In this document: positions 519-18,576 of the stretch, piece by piece
How positions within the stretch are numbered: position 1 is the first letter of the stretch
How the letters are laid out: every line of letters starts with the position of its first letter
Translations under genes and position numbers: made by a program
Notes under the pieces: model-generated
The model's input: only the letters and a program-made list of their open reading frames with translations
The model's database searches: none
Told to the model about the DNA's origin: nothing
Assembly (NCBI GenBank): GCA_003219995.1
Contig: QHRC01000049.1
Location: forward strand, 1-18,576
Length of the DNA stretch: 18,576 bases
Source: Verrucomicrobiota bacterium
GTDB lineage: Bacteria; Verrucomicrobiota; Verrucomicrobiia; Chthoniobacterales; UBA10450
Reading direction: 5' to 3'

Positions 519-770
519 ATGCCGACCGAGTTGAAGCTTTTTAGCCGGGAATGGTGCTCGTGGTGCATTGATGCCAAGGATTATCTGAGCGAGCGCGGTT
601 ACAAGTTCATCGAGATTGACGTTGGGCAAGATCGACGAGCATATCAGGAAATGAAGGAGCTCTCCGATCAAACATATGTCCCGACTTTCGTCGCGGGCGA
701 CAAGGTTCTGGCGAATTTCGATACCGATCAGCTCGAGAGATTTTTGCGCGAACACCAAATTCATCCGTAA
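519..770 (+). CDS. Glutaredoxin family protein, 83 aa
   Basis: Small dithiol oxidoreductase of the glutaredoxin/NrdH fold, expected in the cytoplasm. The active site is C-S-W-C (Cys13, Cys16) at the start of the first helix, preceded by the beta strand ELKLFSREW. The cis-proline motif TYVPTF and the following GDKVLANFD complete the glutathione or thioredoxin-fold signature. The length of 83 residues is typical. I chose the ATG at 519, because it places the first beta strand at the N-terminus; a longer in-frame reading from 456 would overlap the proS stop and add residues with no family counterpart. The stop overlaps the next start (TAATG), implying translational coupling to the membrane protein. 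The physiological partner is not evident from sequence. Confidence 0.9.
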   Translation: MPTELKLFSREWCSWCIDAKDYLSERGYKFIEIDVGQDRRAYQEMKELSDQTYVPTFVAGDKVLANFDTDQLERFLREHQIHP

Positions 771-1585
771 TGCTTTTCGGACTTTTCCTTACCCTCGGGG
801 TGGCTGTGCTGAGCGTTGCCCTCCGCAGTTATCAAAGCTCCTTTTCCCAAAAAGCCGGCGCACTCGGCATTTTGATCTCGTCCTATCTGGCGATTTATTT
901 CATTACCGGCAGCCACGTCCTCGGGGCGGTCGCGGCCATGAGTTGGCTCTTTCTGCCCTGGCTGGAAATTCTCACCCGCATTCGCACTTTGCGTTTGCCG
1001 AAGGAAAAACGGCTCCGGCCGAAAAACCCGCCTTCCTCGGACATTTTCCCCACGCTCAATGAAATCACGCGCGAGATCGAGAGCGAGGGATTCGTCCACC
1101 TCAACGACGCTGGCTGGGACTGGGAAGATTATCGGCAATTTTTTCGCTTGTTTTACAAGGATGAGGACCGCGCCCAGGCCACTATCTGCTTGAACGAGCA
1201 GCACGATCTCTCATTTTATTATCTGCGAATCTCGTCGCGCGCGAAGGGCGGCACGATTTGGACGACTTGGAATTATCCGCTCTCCTACGGCTTGAAACTC
1301 ACTCCGCAGTTCCGCATCAATCGTCAGCGTCCCGATCAATCGTTCTGGCAGCTTTACCAAAGCCATCGCGAATTTCTTCGCCGCAATCGGGTGGATGTTG
1401 GAACCATCGACATCCTGGATGAGGAGCGCATTCAGACCGAGATGGAAAACGATCTGCGCGATCAAATCGCGCACAACATCGACAAGGGCGTGCTCAAGCA
1501 AACGGCAGCGGGGGAGGTGAAATATTCCTGGCGAGGGATGATTTATCTTTGGTGCCAGTTTCTGCTCGATCTGGTCAGGTTGTAG
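770..1585 (+). CDS. Uncharacterised membrane-anchored protein, 271 aa
   Basis: I do not recognise a family. The N-terminus is strongly hydrophobic: one segment at about residues 1-20 and one or two more at about 28-66 (rich in A, L, I, W), followed by a basic stretch (RIRTLRLPKEKRLRPK) suggesting that the long remainder is cytoplasmic by the positive-inside rule. Residues 90-250 are soluble-looking and aromatic-rich (NDAGWDWEDYRQFF, WTTWNYPLSYGLKL). The last 20 residues (GMIYLWCQFLLDLVRL) are again hydrophobic and could lie along the membrane. The ATG overlaps the glutaredoxin stop, so the two are probably co-translated; this pairing is the only functional hint. The TAG stop lies inside the TGTAG head of a REP-like repeat (1581-1642), so the natural 3' end may have been altered. 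Confidence 0.8.
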   Translation: MLFGLFLTLGVAVLSVALRSYQSSFSQKAGALGILISSYLAIYFITGSHVLGAVAAMSWLFLPWLEILTRIRTLRLPKEKRLRPKNPPSSDIFPTLNEITREIESEGFVHLNDAGWDWEDYRQFFRLFYKDEDRAQATICLNEQHDLSFYYLRISSRAKGGTIWTTWNYPLSYGLKLTPQFRINRQRPDQSFWQLYQSHREFLRRNRVDVGTIDILDEERIQTEMENDLRDQIAHNIDKGVLKQTAAGEVKYSWRGMIYLWCQFLLDLVRL

Positions 1586-1642
1586 CGGCACTCTATGAGC
1601 GCCGGATCGGATTAATTTCGGCGGTCATAGACCGCCTCTACA
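1581..1642. repeat. REP/BIME-like inverted pair E1
   Basis: Two 24-bp units face each other. The left unit is at 1581-1604 on the plus strand, the right unit at 1619-1642 on the minus strand; written in the same orientation they agree at 20 of 24 positions. Each begins TGTAG and continues into a GC-rich imperfect palindrome around TCTATGA. The right unit alone forms a 7-bp stem (GGCGGTC at 1620-1626 with GACCGCC at 1630-1636, loop ATA). The pair sits between the converging membrane-protein gene and frr, and could also act as a bidirectional terminator, although no T run follows. The TAG at 1583-1585 is the stop codon of the upstream gene. Confidence 0.7.
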
Positions 1643-1665
1643 GCGATTATCGACCTTGCGCACGG

Positions 1666-2226
1666 TTACACCTTCATAATCTCAGCTTCCTTGTGCTTGA
1701 GATGATCATCGACTGATTTTACGAAACGATCGGTCAATTTTTGGATTTCATTTTCCAAATCGTGTAATTCGTCTTCGCTCGATCCCCCCGCGGTCTTGAG
1801 TTTCTTGGCCTCATCCAGCGCCGTGCGACGATTGACGCGCACGCGCACACGCGCTTCCTCAGCCATTTTGCCTAACGAGCGCACAAGATCTTTGCGCCGT
1901 TCTTCGGAAAGTTCCGGAATGGGCAGCCGGATAATTTTTCCATCGACATTCGGCGTGATGCCGATCTTCGATTCCTTGAGCGCACGCTCGATGTCCTGCA
2001 CCGTGCCGGCGTCGAACGGCTGGACGACGAGCAAGCGCGGCTCCGGCGTAGTGATCAAGGCGAGCTGTTTCAGCTTCATGGCTGATCCGTATGCTTGAAC
2101 ATCGACGTTCTCGACTAGCGCAGGCGAGGCCTTGCCCGTGCGCACGGCGGCAAATTCGTGCACCATGTAATCGACGCTTTTTTCCATCGACATCTCGGCT
2201 TCCAGAAGAATGTCGTCCCTGCTCAT
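1666..2226 (-). CDS. frr: Ribosome recycling factor
   Basis: Frr splits the post-termination ribosome together with EF-G so that subunits can be reused. The 186-residue product matches the usual length of about 185. Family marks include EFAAVRTGKASPALVENV in helix 1, the domain II segment LVVQPFDAGTVQDIERAL, the segment LPIPELSEERRKDLVRSLGK, and the C-terminal helix ending DHLKHKEAEIMKV. The start is ATG; no other upstream start is needed. It lies 12 bp downstream of pyrH on the same strand, the classic pyrH-frr pair, and is the last gene of the minus-strand cluster, followed by the E1 repeat. No anomaly is seen in the protein. Confidence 0.98.
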   Translation of the reverse strand: MSRDDILLEAEMSMEKSVDYMVHEFAAVRTGKASPALVENVDVQAYGSAMKLKQLALITTPEPRLLVVQPFDAGTVQDIERALKESKIGITPNVDGKIIRLPIPELSEERRKDLVRSLGKMAEEARVRVRVNRRTALDEAKKLKTAGGSSEDELHDLENEIQKLTDRFVKSVDDHLKHKEAEIMKV

Positions 2227-2238
2227 GCGGCTAGATTT

Positions 2239-2979
2239 TCACTTCGGCTCCAACTCATTGCAAACCAGCGTCCCGACTTTGCGGCCGAGCACGGCGTCAC
2301 GGATGTTGCTCGGCTTGTTCATGTCGAACACCAGGATGGGAATTTTGTTATCCATGCAAAGGCTGAAGGCGGTCGAATCCATGATTTGCAGCCGTTTTGC
2401 AAGCGCTTCGGTGAAAGTGATTTGCTCGTAGAGTTGGGCGTTTGGATCGGTGTTCGGGTCGCGATCGTAAACGCCGTCCACTTTCGTCGCTTTCAGGATG
2501 ACATCGGCGCGAATCTCGCTCGCGCGGAGGGCCGCGGTCGTATCCGTCGAAAAGTAGGGATTGCCGGTGCCGGCCGCGAAAATAACCACGCGGCCAAGTT
2601 CGAGATGGCGAACAGCGCGGCCCAGGATAAACGGCTCGGCCACATTTTTCATTTCAATCGCTGTCTGTACCCGTGTCGCCACGCCCATCTCAGCGAGCGT
2701 GCTCCGCAACGCCAACGCGTTGATAACGGTCGCGAGCATGCCCATGTAATCGGCCGTCGTGCGGTCCATGCCGCGATTAGAGGCGGCAAGACCGCGCCAG
2801 ATGTTACCCCCGCCGATGACCACCGACGTTTGCACGCCGAGATCGTGCACTTCTTTAATCCGGACCGCGATTTCGCGAACAACGGACGGGGAAATATTTT
2901 CTCGCGCGCCGCGCTCTTGCAGCGCTTCGCCGCTCAACTTAAGCACAATGCGTTTATAAGCGGGCGCTTCCTTTTCCAT
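2239..2979 (-). CDS. pyrH: UMP kinase
   Basis: Phosphorylates UMP to UDP using ATP, the bacterial hexameric UMP kinase of the amino-acid kinase superfamily, cytoplasmic. Visible marks are [12 protein letters not shown] (nucleotide binding, about residues 9-20), the segment [31 protein letters not shown], the segment [12 protein letters not shown], and [15 protein letters not shown] near the C-terminus. With the ATG at 2979 the product has 246 residues, close to the usual 235-245. An in-frame TTG three codons upstream (2988) is possible, but ATG is favoured; neither has a clear Shine-Dalgarno sequence. In many bacteria tsf precedes pyrH; here the upstream gene is fmt, separated by about 130 bp holding the E2 repeat. 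Confidence 0.97.
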
Positions 2980-3069
2980 GATCGACAATGATCAAACAGA
3001 ACGCCGCGCGCTTTTGAAAGCAAAATGAAATGAAATGGTAGGCCGCGACGGGCTGGCCTGGGCAAAAGT

Positions 3070-3117
3070 TGTAGGGAAGCCGTTCGTTTCCCATGGGACA
3101 ACAACGTCGCCCCTACA
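3070..3117. repeat. REP/BIME-like inverted pair E2
   Basis: A 48-bp imperfect palindrome centred on CCCATGGG (3090-3097). Each 24-bp arm starts TGTAG at its outer end and the arms match at 18 of 24 positions. The right arm, read on the minus strand, supplies the TAG stop of fmt (bases 3113-3115). A further GTAG-headed hairpin with stem AGGCC/GGCCT lies just outside at 3038-3059 and may be a third, more degraded unit. The element occupies the gap between fmt and pyrH, which are both on the minus strand, so any transcript running through would carry a long hairpin there. Confidence 0.7.
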
Positions 3118-4051
3118 GGTGTGCGATTTGAAAATCGCGTGGAAACCCGCGCAGAAATTCTTCCGCACTCATGCGCCGCTTTCCTTCAATCTGCACTTCG
3201 CGCAACTGCAATGCCCCTTTGCCGGCTGCGATGACGAAGTCATTTCTGTCGGCCACCAGAATTTCTCCAGGTGCGCCGCTACGATCGATAATCGCGGCCG
3301 AAAATATCTTCAAATTGCGCAGTTCATCTACCTTGGCGGTGATTTTTGTGAACGCACCCGGCCACGGATCAAAGGCGCGGATTTTCCGCACAATCGCTTC
3401 GGCCGGTTCCGACCAATCGATTCTACCATCTTCGCGAGTCAATTTGGGCGCGTAAGTGGCGAGCGCGGTGTCTTGCGGCGCGCGCGGCACATTTTCGCTG
3501 GAGAGCGCTCGCAACGATTCGAGCAATACGGCGGGTGCAACTTGACCCAGCCGATCGTGCAGAGAGCCGCCGGTCTCGTTGGGCTCGATCTCGATCGTTC
3601 GCTGCAACAAGATATCACCGGTATCGAGTCCCTCATCCATGTAGATGATCGTGATTCCGGTCTCGCGATCGCCCGCCGCAATTGCGGCCTGGATCGGTGC
3701 CGCGCCGCGCCAGCGCGGGAGCAGCGATGCGTGCAAATTCAAACAAACGATTTTTGGAATTTCGAGAATGCCGCGCGGCAAAATTTGTCCGTAAGCCATG
3801 ACGACAACCACATCCGGTTGCAACGCGCGAATTCGCTCAATCGCTTGTCGATCTTTGATGCGCGCCGGTTGCAAGATCGATATCTTCATTTGAGCGGCCG
3901 CTTGTTTGATTGGCGACGCATCGATGCGTCGATCCCGCCCAACCGGTTTGTCCGGCTGCGTGACGACGGCAACGATTTCGTGTTCCGATTTTTGCAGCGC
4001 TTGCAACGCCGGCACGCCGATTTTGCCCGTGCCGATAAAAATGATGCGCAT
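3113..4051 (-). CDS. fmt: Methionyl-tRNA formyltransferase
   Basis: Transfers a formyl group from 10-formyltetrahydrofolate to initiator Met-tRNA, making fMet-tRNA for translation initiation. The 312-residue length is normal (about 310-315). The Rossmann-like N-terminus reads MRIIFIGTGKIGVPALQ. The active-site motif CLNLHASLLPRWRGAAPI supplies Asn105 and His107, and MDEGLDTGDIL supplies Asp143, the three catalytic residues of the family. The C-terminal OB-fold domain (about 205-312) is present. The gene begins 6 bp after the zinc-ribbon gene stop, so it is probably in the same operon. The final codons CTG-TAG are part of the TGTAG head of repeat E2. Confidence 0.97.
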   Translation of the reverse strand: MRIIFIGTGKIGVPALQALQKSEHEIVAVVTQPDKPVGRDRRIDASPIKQAAAQMKISILQPARIKDRQAIERIRALQPDVVVVMAYGQILPRGILEIPKIVCLNLHASLLPRWRGAAPIQAAIAAGDRETGITIIYMDEGLDTGDILLQRTIEIEPNETGGSLHDRLGQVAPAVLLESLRALSSENVPRAPQDTALATYAPKLTREDGRIDWSEPAEAIVRKIRAFDPWPGAFTKITAKVDELRNLKIFSAAIIDRSGAPGEILVADRNDFVIAAGKGALQLREVQIEGKRRMSAEEFLRGFPRDFQIAHL

Positions 4052-4057
4052 GCCGAA

Positions 4058-4306
4058 TTACGGCATCCGTTGATGAGCGCGCGGCGCGCGACGTCGGCTT
4101 TGTCCAGCCATCGCTTGCGTCATCAATTTTTCGCCTGCTGTCACTTCACGCTGGCCGACCGAAGACGCGCAGCTGGTGCAGAGGTAATCGAAGATCTCTT
4201 TGCCCGGCAGAACTAAGAGCAGCCGCTCGCGCACCGGCATCGCGGCTTTGCACTTTTCGCAGTAGAGAGTTGAGGCGGTGAAATTTTCAAACTGCGGCTG
4301 AGTCAT
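4058..4306 (-). CDS. Small double-CxxC zinc-ribbon-like protein, 82 aa
   Basis: Not a family I can name. Two cysteine pairs, C-E-K-C and C-T-S-C, about 28 residues apart (LYCEKCKAAM, then FDYLCTSCASSVG), make a zinc ribbon likely. The tail is basic (QSRRRAPRAHQR). There is no signal peptide, so the protein should be cytoplasmic. Three in-frame ATGs (4324, 4315, 4306) are available; I prefer 4306 because it gives the smallest overlap with adk (20 bp), but this is not decided by a ribosome binding site. It sits between adk and fmt with close spacing on both sides, so it is probably co-expressed with translation genes. Binding to nucleic acid or the ribosome is conceivable but is only inference. 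Confidence 0.7.
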   Translation of the reverse strand: MTQPQFENFTASTLYCEKCKAAMPVRERLLLVLPGKEIFDYLCTSCASSVGQREVTAGEKLMTQAMAGQSRRRAPRAHQRMP

Positions 4307-4895
4307 GATGGCCATCCATGCCATTCACGCTGGCGAGGATATCGAACAAGACTTTTGACGGCGTTTGCATGGCGTCAATCACCGTGACGGAATCCTTCGG
4401 ATAATAAACCAGAACCGGCTTCGATTCCGATTCGTAAATATCGAGGCGCCGCTGAATGACCTGCTCGTTGGCGTCATCGAGGCGGTTGTCTTTCAAAGCG
4501 CGCTTCTTCAAGCGGCCGAATAAGGTCTCGCGATTCGGGCAGGAAAGATGGAAGACTTTCTCTACGTCGATCATCTCCTGCATGATCTTGGCCTGGCCCA
4601 GGTTTCGCGGGATGCCGTCAAGGACGAGGATGTCGATGTCCGGTTTGAATTTATGTGCGTCCACTGCGGCATGGATCGCCTCTTTCCAAAGTTCGACCGT
4701 GATGTCGTCTGGGACGAGCTGGCCTTTGCTCGAATATTCGAGGAACGCTTTGCCAACTTTCGTGCGCGTATCAATGGAGCGGAACACATCGCCACACGGG
4801 CAATGAAAAAAACGCGGGATGGTGCCGAGGGTTTTGCCTTGTGTGCCTTTGCCGCTGCCGGGCGCGCCGAAGAGGATGAACGTCCTGTATTTCAT
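4287..4895 (-). CDS. adk: Adenylate kinase (short type)
   Basis: Catalyses ATP + AMP to 2 ADP in the cytoplasm. The start at 4895 gives 202 residues beginning MKYRTFILFGAPGSGKGTQ, with the P-loop at residues 10-18. A further marker is LVLDGIPRNLGQAK (family DGFPR, here DGIPR). The LID region is short: LFGRLKKRALKDNRLDD passes directly into VIQRRLDIYE, without the roughly 30-residue, often zinc-binding, insert of long-type enzymes. The reading frame stays open upstream to 5114, but that part overlaps rpmA and is not coding. The C-terminal tail (GMDGHHDSAAV) overlaps the start of the next gene by about 20 bp. A general nucleoside monophosphate kinase of the same family is the only alternative. 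Confidence 0.93.
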   Translation of the reverse strand: MKYRTFILFGAPGSGKGTQGKTLGTIPRFFHCPCGDVFRSIDTRTKVGKAFLEYSSKGQLVPDDITVELWKEAIHAAVDAHKFKPDIDILVLDGIPRNLGQAKIMQEMIDVEKVFHLSCPNRETLFGRLKKRALKDNRLDDANEQVIQRRLDIYESESKPVLVYYPKDSVTVIDAMQTPSKVLFDILASVNGMDGHHDSAAV

Positions 4896-4932
4896 GAGGG
4901 AAGCTGGTTTATACCGTAAAGGGTGCCCATCC

Positions 4933-5190
4933 TTACTTTTGAGCAACCACCGGGTCGACATTGACCCGTCGACCCGCGCGGTCGAAGCGCACGTTGCCAT
5001 CGACCAAGGCAAAAATCGTGTAATCGCGTCCGAGACCGACGTTTCGGCCCGGTAAAAATTTCGTCCCGCGCTGCCGCACAATGATGTTACCGGCCACGAC
5101 CAATTCGCTACCAAATTTTTTCACGCCTAGCCGTTTACTGACGCTGTCGCGGCCGTTCTTGACGCTGCCTTGTCCTTTTTTATGAGCCAT
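4933..5190 (-). CDS. rpmA: 50S ribosomal protein bL27
   Basis: Component of the large ribosomal subunit near the peptidyl transferase centre. The 85-residue product has the usual N-terminus [16 protein letters not shown], followed by KRLGVKKFG and the conserved [27 protein letters not shown]. The N-terminus begins directly at the mature MAHKK form, without the cleavable extension seen in Firmicutes. It follows rplU by 10 bp, the standard rplU-rpmA pair, and precedes adk by 37 bp; in many bacteria obg follows instead. Confidence 0.98.
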
Positions 5191-5200
5191 AACGAGAAGA

Positions 5201-5551
5201 CTATTCCTCGGATTCTTTTGTGGCCGATTTTTTGGCGCCGACGCTGATGTTTTTGATCTTCACTCGCGTCAATTTGCGGCGATGCCCGACGGTGCGGTGA
5301 TAACCCTTGCGCCGTTTAAACTTGAACGCGATAACTTTCTTGTCTTTGCGCTGCTCGACAACTTCCGCCGTCACCTTTGCGCCGGAAATAAGCGGATCGC
5401 CATGCGTCAGTCTGTTGCCCTCGGCGTACATCAAAACATGGCCGAACGTTGCGGTCTTGCCCGCTTCGACCTCGAGAAGATCGACATCGATCGTTTCGCC
5501 TTCCGCGACACGATACTGTCGTCCACCGGTTTTGATAATTGCGTAAGTCAT
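5201..5551 (-). CDS. rplU: 50S ribosomal protein bL21
   Basis: Large-subunit protein that binds 23S rRNA. The start [18 protein letters not shown] at 5551 matches the family N-terminus; an in-frame upstream extension to 5608 would be unsupported. The core ends with the conserved basic segment [24 protein letters not shown], split here only for description, and a short tail rich in Lys, Ser and Glu ([10 protein letters not shown]) follows. At 116 residues it is slightly longer than the usual 103 because of that tail. It lies 10 bp upstream of rpmA. The 124 bp upstream, to the rsmI stop, hold repeat E3 and should contain any promoter private to rplU-rpmA. Confidence 0.97.
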
Positions 5552-5614
5552 AAGCGCGTCCGAGGAGAAAAAGCCGCGCAAAGTTCCACAGATGCGGGGG
5601 TTTGGCAAACAGAA

Positions 5615-5685
5615 AGCGTTGTAGCTGCCGCTGTCCTCAGCGGCAGTTTCGTTCTGCTGCCAGAGATGGAGGCTGCTACAACGCT
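5615..5685. repeat. REP/BIME-like inverted pair E3
   Basis: The outer arms are a perfect 11-bp inverted repeat, AGCGTTGTAGC (5615-5625) and GCTACAACGCT (5675-5685). Inside, the left unit forms a 9-bp hairpin, CTGCCGCTG (5625-5633) with CAGCGGCAG (5638-5646), loop TCCT. The right unit, read on the minus strand, starts TTGTAGCAGCC and is a looser palindrome. As in E1 and E2 both units carry the TGTAG head facing outward. The TAG of the right unit (5676-5678) is the stop codon of rsmI. The element lies between rsmI and rplU, which are in the same direction. Confidence 0.7.
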
Positions 5686-6338: not shown

Positions 6339-6368
6339 CCTGTATCATCGGTTCAAAATGCCCCTCCC

Positions 6369-6388
6369 GCCATCGATTGCACGATGGC
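6369..6388. promoter_or_regulatory. 7-bp dyad in divergent intergenic region
   Basis: GCCATCG (6369-6375) and CGATGGC (6382-6388) form a perfect inverted repeat around ATTGCA. It lies in the 110-bp gap between the divergent rsmI and lipoprotein genes, where promoters for both should be. A dyad of this size could be an operator or a short hairpin in a leader. I cannot place convincing -35/-10 boxes around it, so the regulatory role is a guess. Confidence 0.3.
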
Positions 6389-6448
6389 TGTCATTTCCAA
6401 TAAAACCAAACCGCTGGTGCAAAACGAATTAATCGTGAGGAAACCTAT

Positions 6449-6796: not shown

Positions 6797-6821
6797 CCGA
6801 AATCCATCGAAACGCAGTCGA

Positions 6822-9800
6822 TCAACCGCGCACGCGAAATTCGTCGCGATAGAGCGGCGTTTCTTCGGGTGCGAAGCCGTGGCGCATGATGTTTTCGGTG
6901 ACAACACGCGGCACCACGAATTGCAAAAGATAATCTTCGCCGCCGGCCTTGGTGCCGCCACCGCTCATCTTGAATCCGCCGAATGGGTGCCGCCCGACGA
7001 CCGCGCCGGTGCAGGAGCGATTGATGTAAACATTCCCGGCTTCGATTTGGGCTCTGGTGCGCTCAATGTTGGCTGGACTGCGCGAGAAAAATCCGGCGGT
7101 GAGCGCGTAATCGGTGCCGTTCGCGATCTTGATTGCTTCATCGAGATCGCGCGCTCTCAAAACGCTGAGAACCGGTCCGAAAATTTCTTCGCGGGCAATG
7201 CGCATGTCCGGCTTCACATCGACAAAGATTGTCGGCGGAATGAAGTACCCTTTTGACGGCACATTCTGATGCTGGAACGCGAGAGTGGCTTCGCTCTTGC
7301 CGGTCTCGATGTAATCCAGGATGCGCTCATGGGCTGTCTTGTCGATGACGGGGCCGACCGTAATCCCAGGTTCCTCCGGATTTCCGACCCGTAAACTCGC
7401 GGCCGCGTTGAGCAGGCGCTCGATCACGCGATCGTAATTTTGTTCCAGCACGATCAGTCGCGAAAGCGCCGAGCATTTTTGGCCTTGGTAACCAAAGGCG
7501 GAATAAGTGCAATCGACGATCGCTTCATCGAGATCGGCATCGGAATCGATAATGATAGCGTTTTTTCCGCCCATTTCGCAAATCACGCGCTTGAGCTCGC
7601 GCTGATCGGGGCGGGTGATGCCGGCGCTCTCCCAGATTCGCAGACCGACTTCGCGCGACCCGGTGAACGCAATAAGGTCGACATCTCTATGATCGACAAG
7701 GTGCGCGCCGATCACCGAGCCCTTGCCGGGGAAGTAATTCAATACGCCCGGCGGCACGCCGGCTTCCTCGAAAATCTCCATCAGCATGGCGCCGCAAACA
7801 GCCGATTGCTCGGCCGGCTTCATAATAACCGTGTTGCCGGTGACGAGCGCGGCCGTGGTCATTCCGCAGAGGATCGCGAGCGGAAAATTCCACGGCGCAA
7901 TGACGAACGCGACTCCGCGCGGCCAGTAGTGATAGTAGCTTTCTTCACCCGGAACGTGTTGGGTCAGGCGCGGCCGTCCGATCCGTCGCATTTGCTGGGC
8001 ATAAAAGAGACAAAAATCGATTGCCTCGCGGATATCGCCGTCCGCTTCCGTCCACGGTTTGCCGACTTCGAAAACCTCGAGCGCGGAGAGCTGGAAGCGA
8101 CGGCGGTCCATGATCGCAGCGGCTCGTTCCAATAGTTGCGCTCGTTCTTCGAATGGGGTCCATCGCCATTTTTCGAATGCGCCGCGAGCGGCCTGGACCG
8201 CGCGTTCCGCTTCGGCAATGCCGGCTTCAGCCACTGCGCCAACGACGTCATCGGGCGAGCTCGGATTGATCGAGGCAATCGTTTTGCCGGTCCTAATTTT
8301 TTCGCCATTAATGACCAGCGGATATTCCTTTCCAAGCCGCGTGCGCATTTCGCGCAAGGCGGCGCGCATTTTGTCCTGGTTCGCTTGCTCGGTGAAGTTA
8401 GTGAGCGGCGCGTTTTCGTAAGTATCGCCTGGCGGAGTATCACTGGAACCGCCAGGACGTTGATATCGATCTTTCATTGAGTGTGTAGTCGCAGTGGTTG
8501 AGCGGGTCGATGCACCGTTTCGGCTCTCCCGCAAAAGCTCAGAAGGATTGCGCAATAATTGCTCCTCGGAAACATTCTCGGAAAACTTCGCGCGCAAAAA
8601 ACCTTCATTCGAAGTGTTCTCAAGCAAGCGGCGAACGAGATACGACATTCCCGGCAGCAGCTCGCCGACCGGACAATATTCGCGGACCCGATACCCCATT
8701 TCAACCAGCGCCCGCTTAACTGGACCAGCCATGCCATAGAGCAATTGAAATTCGAAACGGCCGCGATCGATCCCGAGCTCGTCAGCGAGCGCCTGCGCAT
8801 GCGCGATGCTGCGGACATTGTGCGAGCCGAACGCGGCCGTGACGATCGATTCGTTTTCAAGCAACAGTTGGCTGAGCGCTTCAAAGTTCGTGTCGCTCTC
8901 TGGCTTTTGCAGATAAACGGGAATGTCCCAGCCGTTCTGGGTTGATTTGATTTTTTCGTAGTCCCAGTACGCGCCTTTGACGAGCCGCACGGTAAAACGC
9001 GTACGGCGGGCGCGCCCCCAATCGATAAGATCGACAAGATCTTTTTCGGCGTCGCGGAGGTAGGCTTGAATGACAATGCCGGCGTGCGGCCAATCTCGAA
9101 ACTCCGGTTCGGCGAAGAGGGTCTTATAAAGATAGAGTGTGATATTTTTGTGAGAAAAACTCTCCATATCGAAGTTGATAAACGCCCTGAGCTCTTTCGC
9201 TCGCCGCAAAATCGGACGAAGTTTTGGCGCAAGATGGGCGATTGCGTCCGCCGGATCAGCCGGATTTATCTGAGAATAGAGCGCGGAGATTTTTACGGAG
9301 AGATTGACGACGGGAAACAATCCCGCGCTGTCGCCGAGCGGATCGCTCCAGCCGCTTGTTTCGCGCGCGAGATGTTCGAGCAATTCCAAACAGCGTGCCG
9401 CGTATTCGTCCGTCTCCTTTTCGCTGACGACCGCTTCGCCCAAAAGATCGACCGTGAATCCGATCTTCTGTTCGTGCCGCTTGCGCAGCGTCTTCATGAC
9501 GTCATCGGGATTTTTTCCGGCGATGAATTGACGGGCCATCCCGGAAACATTCCAGCGCAGCAATTGGCCGCTGATCCACGGAAGAATTCTCGCGGCGCGG
9601 ACGCCGGTTCGGACGAGCGGCGCGAAGCCATTACCTATGTCCGTGAAATATTCGTCGAGATGCTGAACGATATCGCCTGAATGCCGGAGCGACGGCAGCA
9701 CATCAACAAAGCGAAACATCTGGACTTTAAAACGCTCATCGCGCATCGAGAGCGCCATCAGTCGCTGGTAAAAACCGGCCTTGCTGAAAAGAGATTCCGG

Positions 9801-11324: not shown

Positions 11325-11366
11325 GTAGTTGCGCTGTGAAAAGGACGTCTGTATAGGAGCAGTAAG

Positions 11367-11849: not shown

Positions 11850-11872
11850 AGGAAAAGATTGAATCCGATCGC

Positions 11873-11893: not shown

Positions 11894-12022
11894 TTTCGCC
11901 TGAGGAATTTAAGTCGGCTATTCGGACGAAACTGGCGCAACCCGCCCAATAATCCCGCCTTTTGCGCGGCGCAAACGCAGATGGCTTAGCTCGACAACTT
12001 AGGGGACTTCGCTTTCCTGACG
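11894..12022. other. Short intergenic stretch without a gene
   Basis: Together with the stem-loop above this forms a 173-bp gap (11850-12022). I see no coding signal on either strand. A 5-bp hairpin at 11962-11974 (TTGCG/CGCAA) is the only structure noted and may be chance. Confidence 0.5.
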
Positions 12023-12208: not shown

Positions 12209-12289
12209 ACCCTGAAATGCAGCAGCTCCCGAGCCATTTTGCCCGCTAGCTCGCGTTGCTGAAAACATCCACGAGTGGTAGGTAATAGC

Positions 12290-14416
12290 ATGCCGTTGGC
12301 GTTTCGCTTTGCCGTGCCGGTGACGATTTTCTTTTCGATCTTCGGTGCTGTGCCGGAGGGCAAGAGTCAGACTTATGAGGGAAAAGAGCTGGTCAAGGCA
12401 GAGCTCGTGGCCGACACGAACGCGATTATTCCCGGAAAAAAGTTCACCGCTGGGTTGCTTCTTCGAATGGCGCCCGGCTGGCACACCTACTGGAAGTTTT
12501 CCGGTGACGCCGGAATTCCCACAGAACTGAAATGGAAATTACCGCCGGGCTGGAAAGCAGGCGAGCTACAATGGCCAATTCCGCTGAAAACGAACGACCC
12601 TGGCGATATTCAAACCTACGGCTACCAGGATGAAGTCTTGCTCATGCAGGAAATAATCCCGCCTGCGAAGATCGACAATTCGCCAGTAAAACTTTCGGCG
12701 GAAGCAAACTGGCTCGTTTGCGAGAAAATCTGCATTCCCGGCAGCGCGACTCTGCAACTGGAAATCCCAACATCGACAACGAGCAAGGTCGCAAACACGG
12801 ACCTTTTTGCACGCTACCGCCAGTTACTGCCCAAAGATTGGCCTGGGGCCGACGTCGCGAAGGAGAAATGGAGCCACGTCGGTTCCGAGCTTCACCTCAG
12901 CGTGACCAGCGCGACACTGGCGAATCATCCGGTCGCGGATTTTTATCCATTGCCGGAGGGAAACATCGTTGTTGGTCATCCAAAGATCGAATCGCGGACT
13001 GGGAACGAAATTATTTTTGCTGTTCCGATCGACTCAGCGTCGAAAGATTTATTGTCGATCAAAGGTCTGGTCGTTTTTGCCCAGCGCCCCAATGGAAATG
13101 ACCGTGCCGCCTGGCGCGTGGCCGAACGTGCAGCAGCGCCACCTGCCAAATCTGTTCCCGCACGCGGCGTTCTTACCTTTCTCTTCTTTGGTTTTCTTGG
13201 CGGCTTGATCTTGAATTTGATGCCATGCGTCTTGCCGGTGATTTCGCTCAAGATCTTCGGATTCATTCAGCAGGCCGGTCAGAGCCGTGAAAAAATCTGG
13301 CGCAGCGGCCTCGCTTTCGCCGCTGGAATTTTCGCCTGGTTTGTTGGTCTGGCGCTGCTCCTGATTATTCTCAAAGCTGCCGGCCGCGAAGTTACCTGGG
13401 GGGGGTTTCAATTCACGAATCCTTATTTCGTTCTTTTGCTGAGCGTGATCGTTCTCGTCTTTGCCCTGAATCTTCTCGGCGTCTTCGAAATTTCGCTGCC
13501 GCAAACAGCCACCCGCGGATTGCTCAGCTGGACCGCGGGCGAAGGTGAAGCGGGCTCATTCTTTCAAGGTGTTTTCGCGACCGTCCTGGCGACGCCATGC
13601 ACCGCGCCATTTTTAGGAACCGCTCTTGGTTTCGCCTTCACCCAATCACCGGTAATCATATTGTCGATGTTTGTGGCCATCGCCGCCGGAATGAGCGCTC
13701 CCTATTTGCTCCTCTGTGCGCAACCGGCCTGGTTGCGATTTTTGCCGAAACCGGGCCCGTGGATGACGCATGTGAAACAGTTCATGGGTTTCCTGCTTCT
13801 CGCGACCTTGCTCTTTCTCCTCTACGTGCTCGGCGCGCAACGCGGCAGTGATGCGCTGATTTGGGCTTCGTGTTTTCTGCTCGTTGTCAGCATCGCTTGC
13901 TGGATGAAAGGCGCGTTCATCGTGCCGGGCGCATCGATCGCAACGAGGCGGCTTTCGCTCGTCCTCATGCTCGTGCTTGTAATCGGAAGCGGGATTTATT
14001 TCATTGGCGATAAGTTTCGTTCGTCCAAGCTCGCGACAACTTCGCAACTTGCCGGCGGGTGGCAGGCGTTCACGCCCGAGCGTTTGCAGGAAGAGTTGGC
14101 GGACGGCCACGCCGTCTTTGTCGATTTTACGGCGGCCTGGTGCCTGACGTGCAAATTCAACGAGGCCAGCGTGCTGGAAAGCGCCACCGTGCGCGAAGAA
14201 TTTCAGCGTCGCGGTATTGTCAAATTGAAAGCCGATTGGACGAACGGCGACCCGATCATCACAAAATTATTGCAACAATTTGGCCGCCCGGGTGTCCCAC
14301 TGTATGTGCTCTATCCCGGCAAATCCGCCGAACCGATTGTTTTTCCGGAATTGCTGACCAAGAGTATCATTCTGGACAAACTTGAAACCATCTCGCGCAC
14401 CATCGCTTCACAATAA
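12290..14416 (+). CDS. dsbD: DsbD/ScsB-type thiol:disulfide interchange protein
   Basis: Membrane protein predicted to carry electrons from cytoplasmic thioredoxin to exported thiol proteins. With the ATG at 12290 it has 708 residues (an in-frame GTG at 12275 is possible). A signal peptide lies at about 1-26. The N-terminal periplasmic domain (about 30-285) carries Cys144 and Cys148 in WLVCEKICIPG. The transmembrane core (about 293-572, eight or so helices) has the redox cysteines Cys313 in NLMPCVLPVISLK and Cys437 in ATPCTAPFLG. The C-terminal thioredoxin domain (about 585-708) has C-L-T-C at 618-621 in DFTAAWCLTCKFNE. All three cysteine pairs are intact. The N-terminal domain is the larger ScsB-like type rather than the short E. 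coli nDsbD. The redoxin gene starts 3 bp downstream, the likely client. Confidence 0.93.
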   Translation: MPLAFRFAVPVTIFFSIFGAVPEGKSQTYEGKELVKAELVADTNAIIPGKKFTAGLLLRMAPGWHTYWKFSGDAGIPTELKWKLPPGWKAGELQWPIPLKTNDPGDIQTYGYQDEVLLMQEIIPPAKIDNSPVKLSAEANWLVCEKICIPGSATLQLEIPTSTTSKVANTDLFARYRQLLPKDWPGADVAKEKWSHVGSELHLSVTSATLANHPVADFYPLPEGNIVVGHPKIESRTGNEIIFAVPIDSASKDLLSIKGLVVFAQRPNGNDRAAWRVAERAAAPPAKSVPARGVLTFLFFGFLGGLILNLMPCVLPVISLKIFGFIQQAGQSREKIWRSGLAFAAGIFAWFVGLALLLIILKAAGREVTWGGFQFTNPYFVLLLSVIVLVFALNLLGVFEISLPQTATRGLLSWTAGEGEAGSFFQGVFATVLATPCTAPFLGTALGFAFTQSPVIILSMFVAIAAGMSAPYLLLCAQPAWLRFLPKPGPWMTHVKQFMGFLLLATLLFLLYVLGAQRGSDALIWASCFLLVVSIACWMKGAFIVPGASIATRRLSLVLMLVLVIGSGIYFIGDKFRSSKLATTSQLAGGWQAFTPERLQEELADGHAVFVDFTAAWCLTCKFNEASVLESATVREEFQRRGIVKLKADWTNGDPIITKLLQQFGRPGVPLYVLYPGKSAEPIVFPELLTKSIILDKLETISRTIASQ

Positions 14417-14419
14417 CCT

Positions 14420-15028
14420 ATGAAAACAAAATCAATCGCGGCAATTCTCGCTTCACTCACAACCACGACGCTCCTGGCGCTTGATTCGCCACCGGTTGGC
14501 AGCGCCGCGCCCGACTTTTCGCTCACCGACGCAAAGGGCAAGACACATTCGCTTTCGCAATACAAAGGCAAATACGTCGTCCTGGAGTGGTTCAATCCGG
14601 AATGCCCGTTCGTGAAAAAGCATTACGGCAGCGGCAACATGCAGAAGCTACAAGAAGAATACACGGGCAAAGGTGTTGTCTGGCTGACGATCGATTCTAA
14701 TGCTCCCGGCAGCGAGGGCAACATGACTCCGGAACAAGCTGCGAAAGTTGCAGCCGCTTGGAAAACACATCAAACCGCGCTGCTTCTCGATCCGGAAGGC
14801 AAAGCCGGGCGCGCTTACGGGGCAAAAAACACGCCGAACATGGTCGTGGTTAGTCCTGAGGGTAAAATCGCGTACGAAGGCGCAATCGACAGCAAAGCCA
14901 CGCCCAATCCGGCCGACATTCCCAGCTCGACCAACTACGTCAAAGTCGCGCTCGACGAATCACTCGCGGGCAAACCAGTGACAACGGCGAACACCAAGCC
15001 ATACGGTTGCTCGGTGAAATACCAGTGA
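14420..15028 (+). CDS. Exported AhpC/TSA-family redoxin
   Basis: Thioredoxin-fold protein of the peroxiredoxin/redoxin group, 202 residues. The N-terminus MKTKSIAAILASLTTTTLLA is a signal peptide, so the protein acts outside the cytoplasmic membrane. The redoxin core runs from PPVGSAAPDFSLTDAKGK. The active-site motif WFNPECPFVKKHYG has one cysteine, Cys62, in place of CxxC; a second cysteine, Cys197, sits six residues from the end in KPYGCSVKYQ and is a candidate resolving residue. A cis-Pro motif is visible in KNTPNMVVVSPEG. The gene is 3 bp from dsbD, pointing to DsbD as its reductant. Whether it is a peroxidase or a disulfide-handling protein is not decided. Confidence 0.88.
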   Translation: MKTKSIAAILASLTTTTLLALDSPPVGSAAPDFSLTDAKGKTHSLSQYKGKYVVLEWFNPECPFVKKHYGSGNMQKLQEEYTGKGVVWLTIDSNAPGSEGNMTPEQAAKVAAAWKTHQTALLLDPEGKAGRAYGAKNTPNMVVVSPEGKIAYEGAIDSKATPNPADIPSSTNYVKVALDESLAGKPVTTANTKPYGCSVKYQ

Positions 15029-15037
15029 TATAAACGA

Positions 15038-15826
15038 CTAGCGCTGTTTCGATGAAAAGCGGCGCAAGATCGACATCGGCATCATTCGCACGAGAAACAT
15101 CCCAAGTTTCATTGCGAAACCTGGGATAACGAGCGGGCGAGCGGCTTCGACTGCGGCAAGTCCATCGCGAGCGACTTGTTCGACCGGAACGTAAGCGAAC
15201 TCCGGCCCGGCTTCGGGCTGGCCACCGGGGCGTTTTGCGACCTCTCCGAATTCGGTGTGTACTGGCCCCGGGCAGAGTATAGAAACACTCACGCCAGTGT
15301 CGCGTAATTCCGCGCGGAGCGCTTCCGAAAAGTTCGTCACGTAAGCTTTTGTCGCTGCGTAAACCGCGAAGCCAGGAATCGGGAGAAAACCAGCCGATGA
15401 GCTGACATTCAAGATTGCACCGCGCTTTCTCGCGATCATCGTTGGAAGCAATTTTCTAGTCAGCAGCGTGAGCGCGCTCATGTTCACTTGAATGATCTGG
15501 TCGATCCGTGTCGGATCGCTTGTCGCAAATGGTCCGCTATCGCCCAGTCCCGCGTTATTGATCAACAAATCGATGTCGATCTTGTCGTGCGCGAGCGACT
15601 CAATTAGCGCGTCAACCTGCGTTTTATCCGCAAGATCGACATCGTAAACATGGACGTTCAAGCTCGGATTTGCCTTCGTCAGTTCATTACGCAATTGCTC
15701 CAATCGCTCACGTCGCCGGGCGACGAGCACGACTGAACCGGCGCGGCTCGCGAGCTGCCGCGCAAATTCGCGGCCGATTCCAGCTGACGCTCCTGTGATC
15801 AACGCTTTGCAATTGTTTATTTTCAT
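15038..15826 (-). CDS. Short-chain dehydrogenase/reductase (SDR)
   Basis: NAD(P)-dependent oxidoreductase of the classical SDR family, 262 residues. The cofactor motif TGASAGIG is at 11-18, the structural motif NNAG at 90-93, and the catalytic tetrad is Asn115, Ser142-144, Tyr156 and Lys160 (YAATK). ARRRERLEQL after the second strand, with its run of arginines, suggests a preference for NADP. It resembles the DltE/YqjQ-like branch, whose substrates are mostly unknown. The C-terminus is hydrophobic and basic (MKLGMFLVRMMPMSILRRFS) and could touch the membrane. It converges on the redoxin gene, 9 bp apart. Three copies of the 13-mer AAGATCGACATCG lie inside it. Confidence 0.9.
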   Translation of the reverse strand: MKINNCKALITGASAGIGREFARQLASRAGSVVLVARRRERLEQLRNELTKANPSLNVHVYDVDLADKTQVDALIESLAHDKIDIDLLINNAGLGDSGPFATSDPTRIDQIIQVNMSALTLLTRKLLPTMIARKRGAILNVSSSAGFLPIPGFAVYAATKAYVTNFSEALRAELRDTGVSVSILCPGPVHTEFGEVAKRPGGQPEAGPEFAYVPVEQVARDGLAAVEAARPLVIPGFAMKLGMFLVRMMPMSILRRFSSKQR

Positions 15827-15957
15827 TGCGCGCTTGCCCGCGGGCTCGTTCTCATCGAGTTGCGGACCTTAACTGTTTCCAAGGGGGCGGTGCTATACCT
15901 GATTCACGTATGGCATGGAAGGCGCGCCCGCGATTGTTTAGCTTCATTGTGCGCCTG
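15809..15957 (-). repeat. Imperfect 28-bp direct repeat flanking the rluB-SDR gap
   Basis: 15809-15836 and 15930-15957 match at 23 of 28 positions. On the minus strand the downstream copy includes the SDR start codon (MKINNC), and the upstream copy would read MKLNNR from an ATG at 15947 that overlaps the rluB stop (ATGA). That frame runs only 31 codons (15852-15947) before a stop. It looks like a duplicated translation start region rather than a gene, although a tiny leader peptide cannot be excluded. Confidence 0.4.
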
Positions 15958-16798
15958 ATCGCCGCCTTCTGCCAGGGCGGTTCATCTTGACTGTCCTGGA
16001 GTGAAGCAACGCCATAGATGACTCACCTACAGCATGGCGAACACCCGCAAGGGTCGGTGCCGTTTCTCGATCTGGTCGAATGACCGAGCGCGATATATCT
16101 GACGCTGGCTTTGTCGTTCTCAACACTTTCAATTCAGATTTTGTGAGCGCGCGCCAGTGGCCGCGTGGCAAATCGTCGAGGCGCAAATTTCTGATTCGAA
16201 TGCGTACGAGCCGTTTCACTTTATAACCAACTTGCTCAAACATGCGGCGAATCTGACGATTTATGCCCTGGCGCAGAGTGACCCGCAAACGTGTTGGGGT
16301 GATGGAATGCAAACGCGTGATTTGGGCGCGCTGACCGTCGAGAGAAACCCCGCGCAACAATTTGGCAGCAAGCGCCGGAGTCCATTGCCGGTCGAGCGTT
16401 ATTTCATATTCCTTGTCGATCTTGTAACGTGGATGAGTGAGGCGATGCGCGAGCTCGCCGTCGTTTGTGAGAATGAGCAGACCTTCACTTTGCGCATCGA
16501 GCCGGCCCACGCTGAAGAGCCGCGGGAATTTCCGCGGCAGCAAATCGAAAACTGTGTCGCGCGCGTGAGGGTCGCTTTTCGTGGAAACGAAACCGGCCGG
16601 TTTGTGCAAAATGATCGTGAATGGAAGATCGATACGAACAAGCTTGCCGTTCACTTTCACGTGATCGCGCTCGCTCGGCTGGAAGCTGAAGTCGGTGCAC
16701 GGCTTTCCGTTGACGGCGACGCGCCCGGCCTCGATCAGCTCATCGCATTGGCGGCGCGAGCCGATGCCGGCGGCAGCGAGGAAACGGTTGAGACGCAA
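15944..16798 (-). CDS. rluB: RluB/RsuA-family rRNA pseudouridine synthase
   Basis: Isomerises a specific uridine in rRNA (RluB-like enzymes act on 23S) to pseudouridine. The S4 RNA-binding domain is at the N-terminus (MRLNRFLAAAGIGSRRQCDE). The catalytic Asp101 is in FSVGRLDAQSEGLLILTNDG, and LRQGINRQIRRMFEQVGY is the RsuA/RluB signature. The start is TTG at 16798: the family N-terminus begins exactly there and a stop lies 8 codons upstream with no ATG between. After the catalytic domain (about residue 225) there is a roughly 60-residue basic tail (ending MNRPGRRRRSG) with little family resemblance. RluE or RsuA specificity cannot be excluded. Confidence 0.92.
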   Translation of the reverse strand: MRLNRFLAAAGIGSRRQCDELIEAGRVAVNGKPCTDFSFQPSERDHVKVNGKLVRIDLPFTIILHKPAGFVSTKSDPHARDTVFDLLPRKFPRLFSVGRLDAQSEGLLILTNDGELAHRLTHPRYKIDKEYEITLDRQWTPALAAKLLRGVSLDGQRAQITRLHSITPTRLRVTLRQGINRQIRRMFEQVGYKVKRLVRIRIRNLRLDDLPRGHWRALTKSELKVLRTTKPASDISRSVIRPDRETAPTLAGVRHAVGESSMALLHSRTVKMNRPGRRRRSGAQ

Positions 16799-16863
16799 AG
16801 CAGAGTCAAAAACACGCTGTTACCATTTAACTTTGTAACATTTTTAACGAATCGCCTCTCCGA

Positions 16864-17019
16864 TCACGCGTCCGGTTTCGTTTTGGGAAGGCCGATGACT
16901 TTGCTGCCTTCCTTCCACTGCGCGCGCTTCTTGAGAAGTTCGACGCGCTCAAAACGTTTCAGAACATTGCGCTTGGCCATGATGGTGCTGGCGCCTTTTA
17001 GACTGCGATGCTGCGACAT
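16864..17019 (-). CDS. Small basic protein of the Verrucomicrobia/Chlamydiae type, 51 aa
   Basis: A complete 51-residue gene that is easy to miss because of its size. It starts MSQHRSLKGASTIMAKRN and continues VLKRFERVELLKKRAQW, ending GLPKTKPDA. Lys, Arg and His make up over a quarter of the residues and there are no cysteines or membrane segments, so RNA or ribosome binding is likely. I recall a conserved family of such small basic proteins restricted to Verrucomicrobia, Chlamydiae and relatives, of unproven function; the match is by memory of the motif MAKRNVLKRFERVELLKKR. An internal ATG at residue 14 is the alternative start. A weak -10-like TATAAC lies upstream on the minus strand (about 17112-17117). 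It precedes rluB by 65 bp. Confidence 0.85.
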   Translation of the reverse strand: MSQHRSLKGASTIMAKRNVLKRFERVELLKKRAQWKEGSKVIGLPKTKPDA

Positions 17020-17111
17020 AAACTGGTTTCCCGCCGAAATTGAGCCGGCACATTAAGCTGCGCGCTGGATTTTTCAAATGGAGATCATGGAGATCGTCCG
17101 CCAAGCCGCCG

Positions 17112-18576
17112 TTATAATCGGTTACTTAAGACGACGTATGAGCCGCAGGCTGTGACTTGATGATAAATGTGAAAGCGCTGGGTCAACAGGCTTTCCCAGT
17201 AGGCAACGCGCTTCTCCTCAACGATCAGATAAACGTCGCTGGAATCGCTCCATTTTGTAAGAACTCGATCTTCATCCAGAACGACATCCGCCTTGTTTGA
17301 GCCGATGTGCATTTCGTCGTCGCGCGGCTGATTCACTAAATAAAAGCGCCGATTCAAATAAAAAATAAGGCTGCTGGCGACGTCCAATGATCCCTCGTAA
17401 ATGACTTCGTCGTTGTCGGTGAGCCTGGGATTGAGAAAGCGGGCGGCGTCAGCGAGGGAAAAATGCGGCGCCATCCGCGCTACACCGTCGATCATGCTCA
17501 ATCCGGTTGGAATCATGGCGACGGCAAGCGCCGTGCAGGCGAGTTTCGGTCGTCGCGTCGAGATGAAATAAATCGCGACGAGGGAAAAGATTATGAGAGA
17601 GATGCCGATAATGGCGAACATCGGACGCAAGGCCAGCCAAGCTGGGCTTGGAATGCGTTGTAAGGCGCGCCAGGTCGTCCAGCTCGTGTCCCCGTTGCCC
17701 CGATGTCCATCCATTTCTCCGATCAATTTCGGGAGAAACAAGGCCAGGGCAGCGATGGTGAGTCCGACAAGATTAAGCAAGCCGGCGCCGGCGAGGCGCA
17801 GTTTTCCAGGCGCTCTTAACCACGTCGTCGCGGCCCAGAGAGCAAATCCGCTCCACATGCTCATCGAATAATAATCCTGGCGCTGTCCGATGAGAAGCAG
17901 CGGCAGGAAAGCCACAGCCATCCAACAAAGAGGCAAAGCATCGGCAAATTCAATTTCGCGCGGACGCATCACGCGCCGCCACGCTAGGAGCACTGCGGGC
18001 AAGAGCGCAACCGACCATGGAAACCACCAGGCGAAATGCAACGCGGTAAATTGCAATCGCGGAACGCCATTATCGCTGCCGGGAGCATTGGGAGCAGTGT
18101 GGAGGTGACCCAGCCACTCCACGCCTACAAGTTGGCGAAGAAATCCGGGGAAACGCCACTCCGTCCAAATGTACCACGGAGCAACAATGAGCAGAAAGAT
18201 CGACAAGTACGACCAATGCAAAAGCAGGCGGAAGCGCAAACTAGCCTCTCGATACAACAACCCCAGGATCAACAACACTGCCCCCGGATAAAGCAAACCG
18301 TGCACTCCTTTGGTCAGACAAGCGAGCGCCGCGCAAATCCAAAAGCCAAGAAACCAAAAACGGCGAAAGCGGCGCCGCTGATAACCGCATATGCCGCAAA
18401 GGATCGCGCCGGCAACGAAAGCGCTGAAAACCGGCTCGGGCATAATGAGCCGTCCGAGCAAAAAAGTGCCGCAGGAGCAAAGATAAATCAGACCGGCGAG
18501 GAAACCGCGCCAGTAATCAGCCAGCCGTTCGCCGATTAGAAACGTCACGGCGACGGTCGCAATCATTCCCAGCGCG
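17112..18576 (-). CDS. Glycosyltransferase-39-like (ArnT/PMT family) membrane protein, cut by window end
   Basis: Polytopic membrane enzyme that would use a lipid-linked sugar donor on the outer face of the membrane. The frame is open to the end of the window, so the N-terminus, including the family's catalytic acidic loop, is missing; the ATG at 18566 is internal. About ten hydrophobic segments are visible, with family-like features: [19 protein letters not shown], the segment [19 protein letters not shown], and [17 protein letters not shown]. After the last helix (around 335 of the visible part) there is a soluble C-terminal domain of about 130 residues ([20 protein letters not shown]). This layout matches the ArnT-like group with a C-terminal periplasmic domain. 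The acceptor, whether lipid A, another lipid or a protein, cannot be inferred. Confidence 0.85.

What the first reader, a model, noticed from the sequence alone, without database searches (positions are those of the whole stretch)
628..18204. A 9-mer, AAGATCGAC, and its 13-mer extension recur far above chance and mostly on one strand
Seen directly: 14 exact copies of AAGATCGAC in 18.6 kb (11 plus, 3 minus) against about 0.1 expected from base composition, and six exact copies of AAGATCGACATCG. They fall in both coding orientations and several reading frames (KID, VDL, SIL, QDR), in unrelated genes such as rplU, rsmI, putA, ltaE, dsbD and the SDR, so a shared domain is excluded. Codon preference can explain some KID copies but not the out-of-frame ones. 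Inference: a lineage-specific skewed motif, such as a replichore-orienting, recombination (Chi-like), uptake or methylation-related sequence. The 11:3 bias alone is only suggestive.
Basis: partly seen in the sequence, partly recalled or inferred. Interest (0 to 1): 0.7.

Follow-up and report, generated by a model that had tools for sequence, protein, structure and literature searches.

The report
Highly iterated 10-base word in Verrucomicrobia
A ten-letter DNA word is repeated hundreds to thousands of times in many genomes of one family of Verrucomicrobia, far more often than codon use predicts; it resembles the DNA-uptake words by which some bacteria recognise their own kind's DNA, but no uptake was tested here.

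Summary
AAGATCGAC is the window's top 9-mer (14 copies, 0.28 expected) and occurs 1,152 times in its 2.1-Mb genome (577:575 by strand; backwards control 2). The core is AAGATCGACA (A), in an asymmetric motif of about 22 bp. Synonymous shuffling gives 7 in-ORF copies where 116 are seen. A is confined to one family: 46 of its 83 genomes exceed 100 copies (maximum 4,653), against at most 46 in 130 other genomes of the order and 57 in 384 sampled from the phylum. The 11:3 strand bias is local. Flanks are unique; sites differ between relatives by substitutions. Two surprises: an unrelated word, TCGTTAGGC (B), is equally iterated in sister genera, and one genome (G142) carries both; in G142, A forms direct pairs at exactly 15 or 16 bp (100 pairs; 1.3 expected per spacing), no other spacing being enriched. 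Best reading: uptake-sequence-like molecular drive by a sequence-specific DNA-import system, with a word switch inside the family (confidence 0.5). Uptake is untested, competence genes do not discriminate, and every literature call failed, so novelty rests on recall.

The parts
628..636 (+). A site, 9-mer, in glutaredoxin-like gene, sense, off the codon boundary
3847..3855 (-). A site (10-mer AAGATCGACA) in fmt, sense, off the codon boundary; conserved in L091
5477..5489 (+). A site, 13-mer, antisense in rplU; 9-mer conserved in L091 and L092
6255..6263 (+). A site, 9-mer, antisense in rsmI (TP_methylase)
9027..9035 (+). A site (10-mer), antisense in putA
9444..9452 (+). A site, 9-mer, antisense in putA; conserved in L091
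10614..10626 (+). A site, 13-mer, sense in ltaE-like gene; 9-mer conserved in L091
11106..11118 (+). A site, 13-mer, sense in ltaE-like gene; 9-mer conserved in L091
12668..12676 (+). A site (10-mer), sense in dsbD
15066..15078 (+). A site, 13-mer, antisense in SDR gene, off the codon boundary
15571..15583 (-). A site, 13-mer, sense in SDR gene
15632..15644 (+). A site, 13-mer, antisense in SDR gene
16415..16423 (-). A site (10-mer), sense in S4/pseudouridine synthase gene
18196..18204 (+). A site (10-mer), antisense in PMT-like glycosyltransferase gene, off the codon boundary

Best explanation
A (consensus about CGY-AAGATCGACA-W-Y-T-N-C-a-T-T-T, flanks weaker than the core) is the recognition word of a sequence-specific DNA-binding step, most likely in type IV pilus/ComEC DNA uptake. 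DNA carrying the word is taken up better, so recombination keeps reintroducing it and copies accumulate at random places on both strands, in genes and between them (molecular drive), as with uptake sequences of Neisseriaceae and Pasteurellaceae (recalled). In sister genera the word is B (TCGTTAGGC), so the specificity changed inside the family; G142, which carries both, would have two specificities or the remains of a switch. Shown: family restriction, excess over a codon null, no polarity, unique flanks, difference by substitution, two words, 15/16-bp direct pairs. Inferred: the binding protein, uptake, drive, the switch.
For: Copy number on the scale of known uptake sequences (recalled): 1,152 9-mers in 2.1 Mb, 4,653 10-mers in 2.9 Mb. 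In-ORF copies against 30 synonymous shuffles: A in G000 116 vs mean 7.1 (max 12), in G142 268 vs 16.2 (max 24), in G143 21 vs 1.6 (max 4); B 107 vs 1.8 in G142, 88 vs 1.8 in G147 (max 5 each); in G000 and G142 A uses all six orientation/phase classes and B all four that make no stop. Density outside ORFs is higher in G142 (A single sites 2.69 vs 1.33 per kb) and for B in G147 (3.26 vs 0.97). Extended asymmetric motif from 190 non-ORF sites, T-rich at +16 to +18. No strand bias: 406:424 and 285:258 on two G142 contigs. 5 of 9 alignable sites are perfect in relative L091 (background 10.3% of aligned 9-mers, p = 0.001). In motif-free L093 the 7 alignable sites differ by 2-5 substitutions. The longest motif-free stretch of G142 C4+C2 (13.0 kb) carries a phage-type integrase. 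ComEC in 76 of 83, DprA in 74 of 83 family genomes, PilT family over cut-off in 18 of 18 chosen ones.
Against: No uptake or competence data. ComEC, DprA and PilT also occur where A and B are scarce, so they do not discriminate; the HHH_3 (ComEA-type) domain is found in only 10 of 18 (8 over cut-off) and not in word-rich G143, G141, G149, G108 and G111. Inverted pairs acting as hairpin terminators, common for known uptake sequences (recalled), are not enriched: tail-to-tail pairs at spacings 10-35 number 4, about 17 expected; direct pairs at 15/16 bp are enriched instead. In G000 and G143 density outside ORFs is not higher (0.48 vs 0.57 and 0.22 vs 0.28 per kb). No receptor candidate was found. 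Site-poor foreign DNA is expected under other chromosomal functions too, and only the longest gap is clearly mobile.
Confidence: 0.5

Rival explanations
1. A and B are binding sites of an abundant chromosome-organising or genome-surveillance protein, spread by selection for coverage rather than by uptake.
For: Direct pairs at 15/16 bp, about one and a half helical turns, suggest protein-protein contact on DNA; sites lie along all sampled G142 stretches on both strands.
Against: Gap lengths are close to random (CV 1.07), not even. Known chromosome-organising sites are fewer and regional (recalled). A complete change of word between sister genera is hard for an essential architectural function (inference).
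Confidence: 0.18
2. A is a Chi-like recombination hotspot or a KOPS-like orientation sequence.
For: Lineage-specific, enriched, non-palindromic word; 11:3 in the window.
Against: Strands equal genome-wide, on 0.5-Mb and 0.34-Mb stretches and over 51 stretches of G142 (p = 0.62); neighbours on the same strand 163 of 309 in G142 and 61 of 108 in G000, but 3 of 18 in the small G143 sample, an unexplained alternation. A 10-bp core is longer than known Chi sequences (recalled).
Confidence: 0.08
3. A is a self-mark for a modification or defence system at the internal GATC or TCGA.
For: A holds GATC and TCGA; the four bases TCGA are among the least variable.
Against: B has no GATC or TCGA; restriction sites are normally avoided, not enriched (recalled). 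No methylation data.
Confidence: 0.07
4. Codon or dinucleotide preference, or dispersed repeats or insertion scars, make the word common.
For: 10 of 14 window copies are on a codon boundary.
Against: Synonymous shuffles give 7 for 116; a third-order Markov model expects 1.7 for 127; flanks carry little beyond about -7 to +21; all window sites inside the L091 and L093 alignments align over all nine bases.
Confidence: 0.02

Closest known systems
DNA uptake sequences (DUS, Neisseriaceae) and uptake signal sequences (USS, Pasteurellaceae); features recalled
   Same: Short non-palindromic word, about a thousand or more copies per genome, both strands, in genes and between them, one-mismatch variants in excess, word differs between relatives (data)
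   Different: Other phylum; two unrelated words in one family and both in one genome; direct pairs at 15/16 bp and no excess of inverted pairs; no uptake data
HIP1 of cyanobacteria (recalled)
   Same: Dense, lineage-restricted word running through coding DNA
   Different: HIP1 is a palindrome; A and B are not
Chi and KOPS (recalled)
   Same: Enriched, species-specific, asymmetric words
   Different: No strand polarity here
Integron attC core box GTTRRRY (recalled)
   Same: B contains GTTAGGC, which fits the box; an integron integrase over cut-off is present in all 7 B-rich genomes and in 26 of the other 76 (Fisher p = 0.001, not corrected for kinship)
   Different: No excess of the partner box RYYYAAC upstream of B (upstream 65 vs downstream 77 in G142; 16 vs 18 in G147); most B sites lie inside ORFs (107 of 130 in G142, 88 of 115 in G147), on both strands, in all five G147 contigs sampled

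Membership tests
DUS/USS uptake sequences | Short word at hundreds to thousands of copies, equal strands | tested here: met
   577:575; 2314:2339 in G142
DUS/USS uptake sequences | Excess within coding sequence not due to codon use | tested here: met
   116 vs 7.1; 268 vs 16.2
DUS/USS uptake sequences | One-mismatch variants in excess | tested here: met
   G000 131 vs 33.2, G143 51 vs 11.3; weaker in G142, 77 vs 40.6
DUS/USS uptake sequences | Inverted pairs as terminators (common, not universal; recalled) | tested here: not met
   No inverted spacing up to 90 has more than 4 pairs in 1.02 Mb of G142
DUS/USS uptake sequences | Competence and type IV pilus genes | tested here: inconclusive
   ComEC, DprA, PilT present but not discriminating; HHH_3 in 10 of 18
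DUS/USS uptake sequences | DNA with the word is taken up preferentially | not testable with these tools
   Needs a culture
DUS/USS uptake sequences | Sequence-specific receptor such as ComP | not tested
   No candidate sought
Chi / KOPS | Orientation bias along the replichore | tested here: not met
   no complete genome with mapped origin
HIP1 | Palindromic word | tested here: not met
   AAGATCGACA and TCGTTAGGC are not palindromes (sequence)
Integron attC (for B) | Paired inverted core boxes | tested here: not met

The most novel reading that the evidence does not exclude
A family of Verrucomicrobiota runs a self-DNA recognition system outside the two lineages where I recall uptake words to be known. 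Its word was replaced wholesale by an unrelated one within the family, one genome now uses both, and its receptor binds two neighbouring words side by side about one and a half helical turns apart, a geometry I do not recall for any uptake sequence (no literature search succeeded).
Probability: 0.3. Interest if true: 0.9.

Novelty: new variant of a known kind. Interest (0 to 1): 0.78.

Why it matters
If the uptake reading holds, it puts sequence-selective DNA exchange in a phylum where I do not recall it. The family offers 83 held genomes in which gain, loss and replacement of the word can be followed, which would make the drive-versus-selection question about uptake words testable. If it does not hold, a genome-wide word of this density with phased double sites still needs a binding protein, which I did not identify.

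Tried and rejected
Strand polarity: the 11:3 bias is not seen genome-wide or along long contigs. Codon preference: refuted by synonymous shuffles. Dispersed repeat or insertion scar: unique flanks and orthologues aligned over the core; note that one search lists gapped and unaligned sites together, but all sites inside the aligned spans of L091 (9) and L093 (7) were aligned over all nine bases. Tandem duplication as the source of the pairs: the spacer matches the bases downstream about as well as shuffled (0.346 vs 0.355 at 15 bp; 0.369 vs 0.330, sd 0.032, at 16 bp) and upstream 0.263 vs 0.302 and 0.329 vs 0.274; the 16-bp class is a little above shuffled, so a minority of duplications is not excluded. 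A degenerate second direct copy next to single sites: no peak at +15/+16; weak inverted peaks at +10, +16 and +17 (1.3-1.7% of 1,349 sites with at least 7 of 10 matches, background 0.5%) are unexplained. Inverted terminator pairs: not enriched. An impression of a second pair class at 25-27 bp was not borne out in G142 (1, 0 and 1 pairs). attC sites for B: no partner box. ComEA-type domain as a marker: patchy. A first tree used wrong reading frames of DprA for G105 and G131 and was discarded. The backwards control is a poor null for B: in most genomes outside the family it exceeds B itself, so B is judged against other families; within the family B is not above that control in G143 (60 vs 79) and some genomes of genera 5 and 14. 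No structure prediction and no receptor search were made.

Literature: the paper search and paper reading all failed with a database time-out. No paper was seen, so statements about known uptake sequences, Chi, KOPS, HIP1 and attC are recalled, and nothing is claimed about what is or is not in print.
Full report
Observation. The window holds 14 exact AAGATCGAC, 11 on plus and 3 on minus, against 0.28 in dinucleotide shuffles, and 6 exact AAGATCGACATCG. It is the window's most frequent 9-mer. In the genome the window comes from (G000, 2,097,096 bases, 285 contigs, 77% complete) the 9-mer occurs 577 + 575 times, its backwards control twice; the 13-mer 54 + 47 times, control 0.

The word. In 226,727 bases of G000 (20 contigs plus the window; 6,476 of them N) the 10-mer AAGATCGACA is the strongest word: 127 seen, 1.7 expected by a third-order Markov model. 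The window has 11 perfect 10-mers and 16 one-mismatch forms. From 190 single sites outside ORFs in G142 the fuller motif is about CGY-AAGATCGACA-W-Y-T-N-C-a-T-T-T, asymmetric, flanks much weaker than the core.

Not codon use. Permuting synonymous codons (30 shuffles; ORFs chosen by length, no gene finder) leaves 7.1 copies in G000 ORFs where there are 116, 16.2 in G142 where there are 268, and 1.6 in G143 where there are 21. All six orientation/phase classes are used in G000 and G142, five of six in G143; those reading KID and VDL are the most frequent. Sense and antisense: 127 and 133 in G142, 49 and 64 in G000.

Not polar. Genome-wide strands are equal. On G142 contig C4 (499 kb) 406:424, on 340 kb of C2 285:258. 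Heterogeneity over 51 stretches of G142 p = 0.62, over G000 contigs p = 0.08. The window's 11:3 has p = 0.057. Neighbours on the same strand: 163 of 309 in G142, 61 of 108 in G000, but only 3 of 18 in the small G143 sample, unexplained.

Who has it. In 213 genomes of the order the 10-mer exceeds 100 copies in 46 of 83 genomes of the window's family f1 (4,653 in G142, 2.9 Mb, 98% complete) and never exceeds 46 in the 130 others. Within f1, genera 5 to 10 and 13 (34 genomes) have 9 to 85 copies. In 387 genomes drawn from the phylum (3 of f1, 8 of other families of the order) none of the 384 others exceeds 57. The nearest named records are Verrucomicrobia MAGs AV37, AV16, AV101 and AV69 by PyrH. 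That the family is the group of Candidatus Udaeobacter is a guess from memory; only places that genus in Chthoniobacterales.

How sites change. Window and L091 (AV37; 75.5% identity over 11,614 aligned bases): 5 of 9 alignable window sites are perfect in L091, and 5 of 10 alignable L091 sites are perfect in the window (5 sites on each side unaligned); 10.3% of all aligned 9-mers are perfect, p = 0.001 and 0.002. In L092 1 of 2 alignable sites is perfect. In L093 (AV101, no copies in 20.7 kb) 0 of 7 alignable positions is perfect; they differ by 2-5 substitutions. Sites therefore seem to come and go by point mutation and to be retained more than their surroundings; the sample is small.

A second word. 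Scanning sequence from eight genomes for enriched words (33 to 227 kb each) showed TCGTTAGGC (B), unrelated to A. Counts exceed 1,000 in 7 of 83 f1 genomes (G141, G142, G144-G148; up to 4,605) and are at most 30 in the 130 others of the order. In 288 phylum genomes (285 not f1) the highest are 133, 75 and 61, all in one genus of family f18; the rest have at most 29. B passes the codon test (107 vs 1.8 in G142, 88 vs 1.8 in G147). A tree of ComEC plus DprA (21 genomes, one to three per genus, 1,131 columns) puts genera 5-10 and 13 on one side of a split with support 100 and genera 1-4, 11, 12 and 14 on the other; counts of A above 100 occur only on the second side, B is strongest in genera 10 and 13 and in G142. 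Deeper branches on the A side have support of 18 to 53. In genus 14 A and B densities run against each other (35 genomes, Spearman -0.49, p = 0.003, kinship not corrected). One-mismatch excess per perfect copy is 0.11 for A in G142, 0.77 in G000 and 1.73 in G143; for B 0.27 in G147 and 0.91 in G142. That would fit B fading in G142, but B there also tolerates YY before GTTAGGC (657 TC, 192 TT, 120 CC), so a shifted preference is as possible.

Phased pairs. In 1.02 Mb of G142 with 1,655 A sites there are 63 direct pairs at 15 bp and 37 at 16 bp; 1.3 are expected per spacing, and no other direct or inverted spacing up to 90 has more than 4. Pairs at spacings 10-35 occur in 26 of 83 family genomes, 268 of them in G142; by my count from the listing 11 of 14 in G149 and 5 of 8 in G000 are at 15 or 16. 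Tandem duplication does not explain most of them, and 62 of 100 lie wholly inside ORFs including 19 of 37 at the frame-breaking spacing 16. Single sites show no degenerate second direct copy. This is what two protein units in contact on DNA would leave, at about one and a half turns of the helix; that step is inference.

Gaps. On G142 C4 and C2, 1,375 gaps average 610 bp, CV 1.07; 3 exceed 5 kb where 0.38 are expected. The longest, 13.0 kb, carries a phage-type integrase (PF00589), a replication-protein match below its cut-off, a CTD10 ABC-three-component protein and a DUF2326 protein: an island. Among the next nine, one carries an MmeI-type recognition domain and one an integron integrase; the others look by eye like ordinary genes and were not run against a library. 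Motif-poor foreign DNA is thus supported by one clear case.

Mechanism. A DNA-import system that prefers the word would produce high copy number, no polarity, spread through genes and frames, near-miss excess, unique flanks, retention above background, poverty in new islands, and replacement of the word when specificity changes. The genes needed are there (ComEC 76 of 83, DprA 74 of 83; PilT family over cut-off in 18 of 18 chosen genomes), but also in word-poor members and in control species such as Escherichia coli, and the ComEA-type HHH_3 domain is patchy (10 of 18). I put the uptake reading at 0.5. The phased direct pairs and the lack of inverted pairs are where it departs from known uptake words (recalled), and they leave room for a chromosome-organising protein.

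Limits. Genomes are mostly fragmented and unnamed; ORFs are length-based; the codon null keeps the amino-acid sequence but not codon-pair effects; correlations are not corrected for kinship; no paper could be read.

Noticed in passing
G141, G142, G144-G148; loci L051-L060, L081-L085: Second, unrelated iterated word TCGTTAGGC (B), over 1,000 copies in 7 of 83 family genomes; both words abundant in G142.
   Followed up: yes
G142 contigs C4 and C2 (L055, L057, L235-L274): Direct pairs of AAGATCGACA at exactly 15 or 16 bp, 100 in 1.02 Mb of G142, no other spacing enriched.
   Followed up: yes
Family-wide; G142 L264:15255-16295: Integron integrase (TIGR02249 over cut-off) in all 7 B-rich genomes and 26 of 76 others; B contains the attC-like box GTTAGGC, though no partner box was found.
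   Followed up: partly
G394, G397, G406 (family f18, genus g76): The only raised B counts seen outside the family (75, 133, 61); could be integron cassette arrays or an independent word.
   Followed up: no
L237:1687-14720 (G142 C4): 13-kb stretch without A but with 4 B sites, carrying a phage-type integrase: an island, perhaps from a donor with the other word.
   Followed up: partly
G000:C19:8221, G149:C50:34884, G150:C25:1240, G151:C144:4359: A pair of A sites 34 bp apart with nearly the same spacer in four genomes of the genus: a conserved double site.
   Followed up: no
G143 stretches L061-L065: Neighbouring A sites alternate strand (same strand in only 3 of 18), unlike G142 and G000; small sample.
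   Followed up: no
G142 single A sites: Weak excess of inverted near-copies at +10, +16 and +17 (1.3-1.7% vs 0.5%).
   Followed up: no
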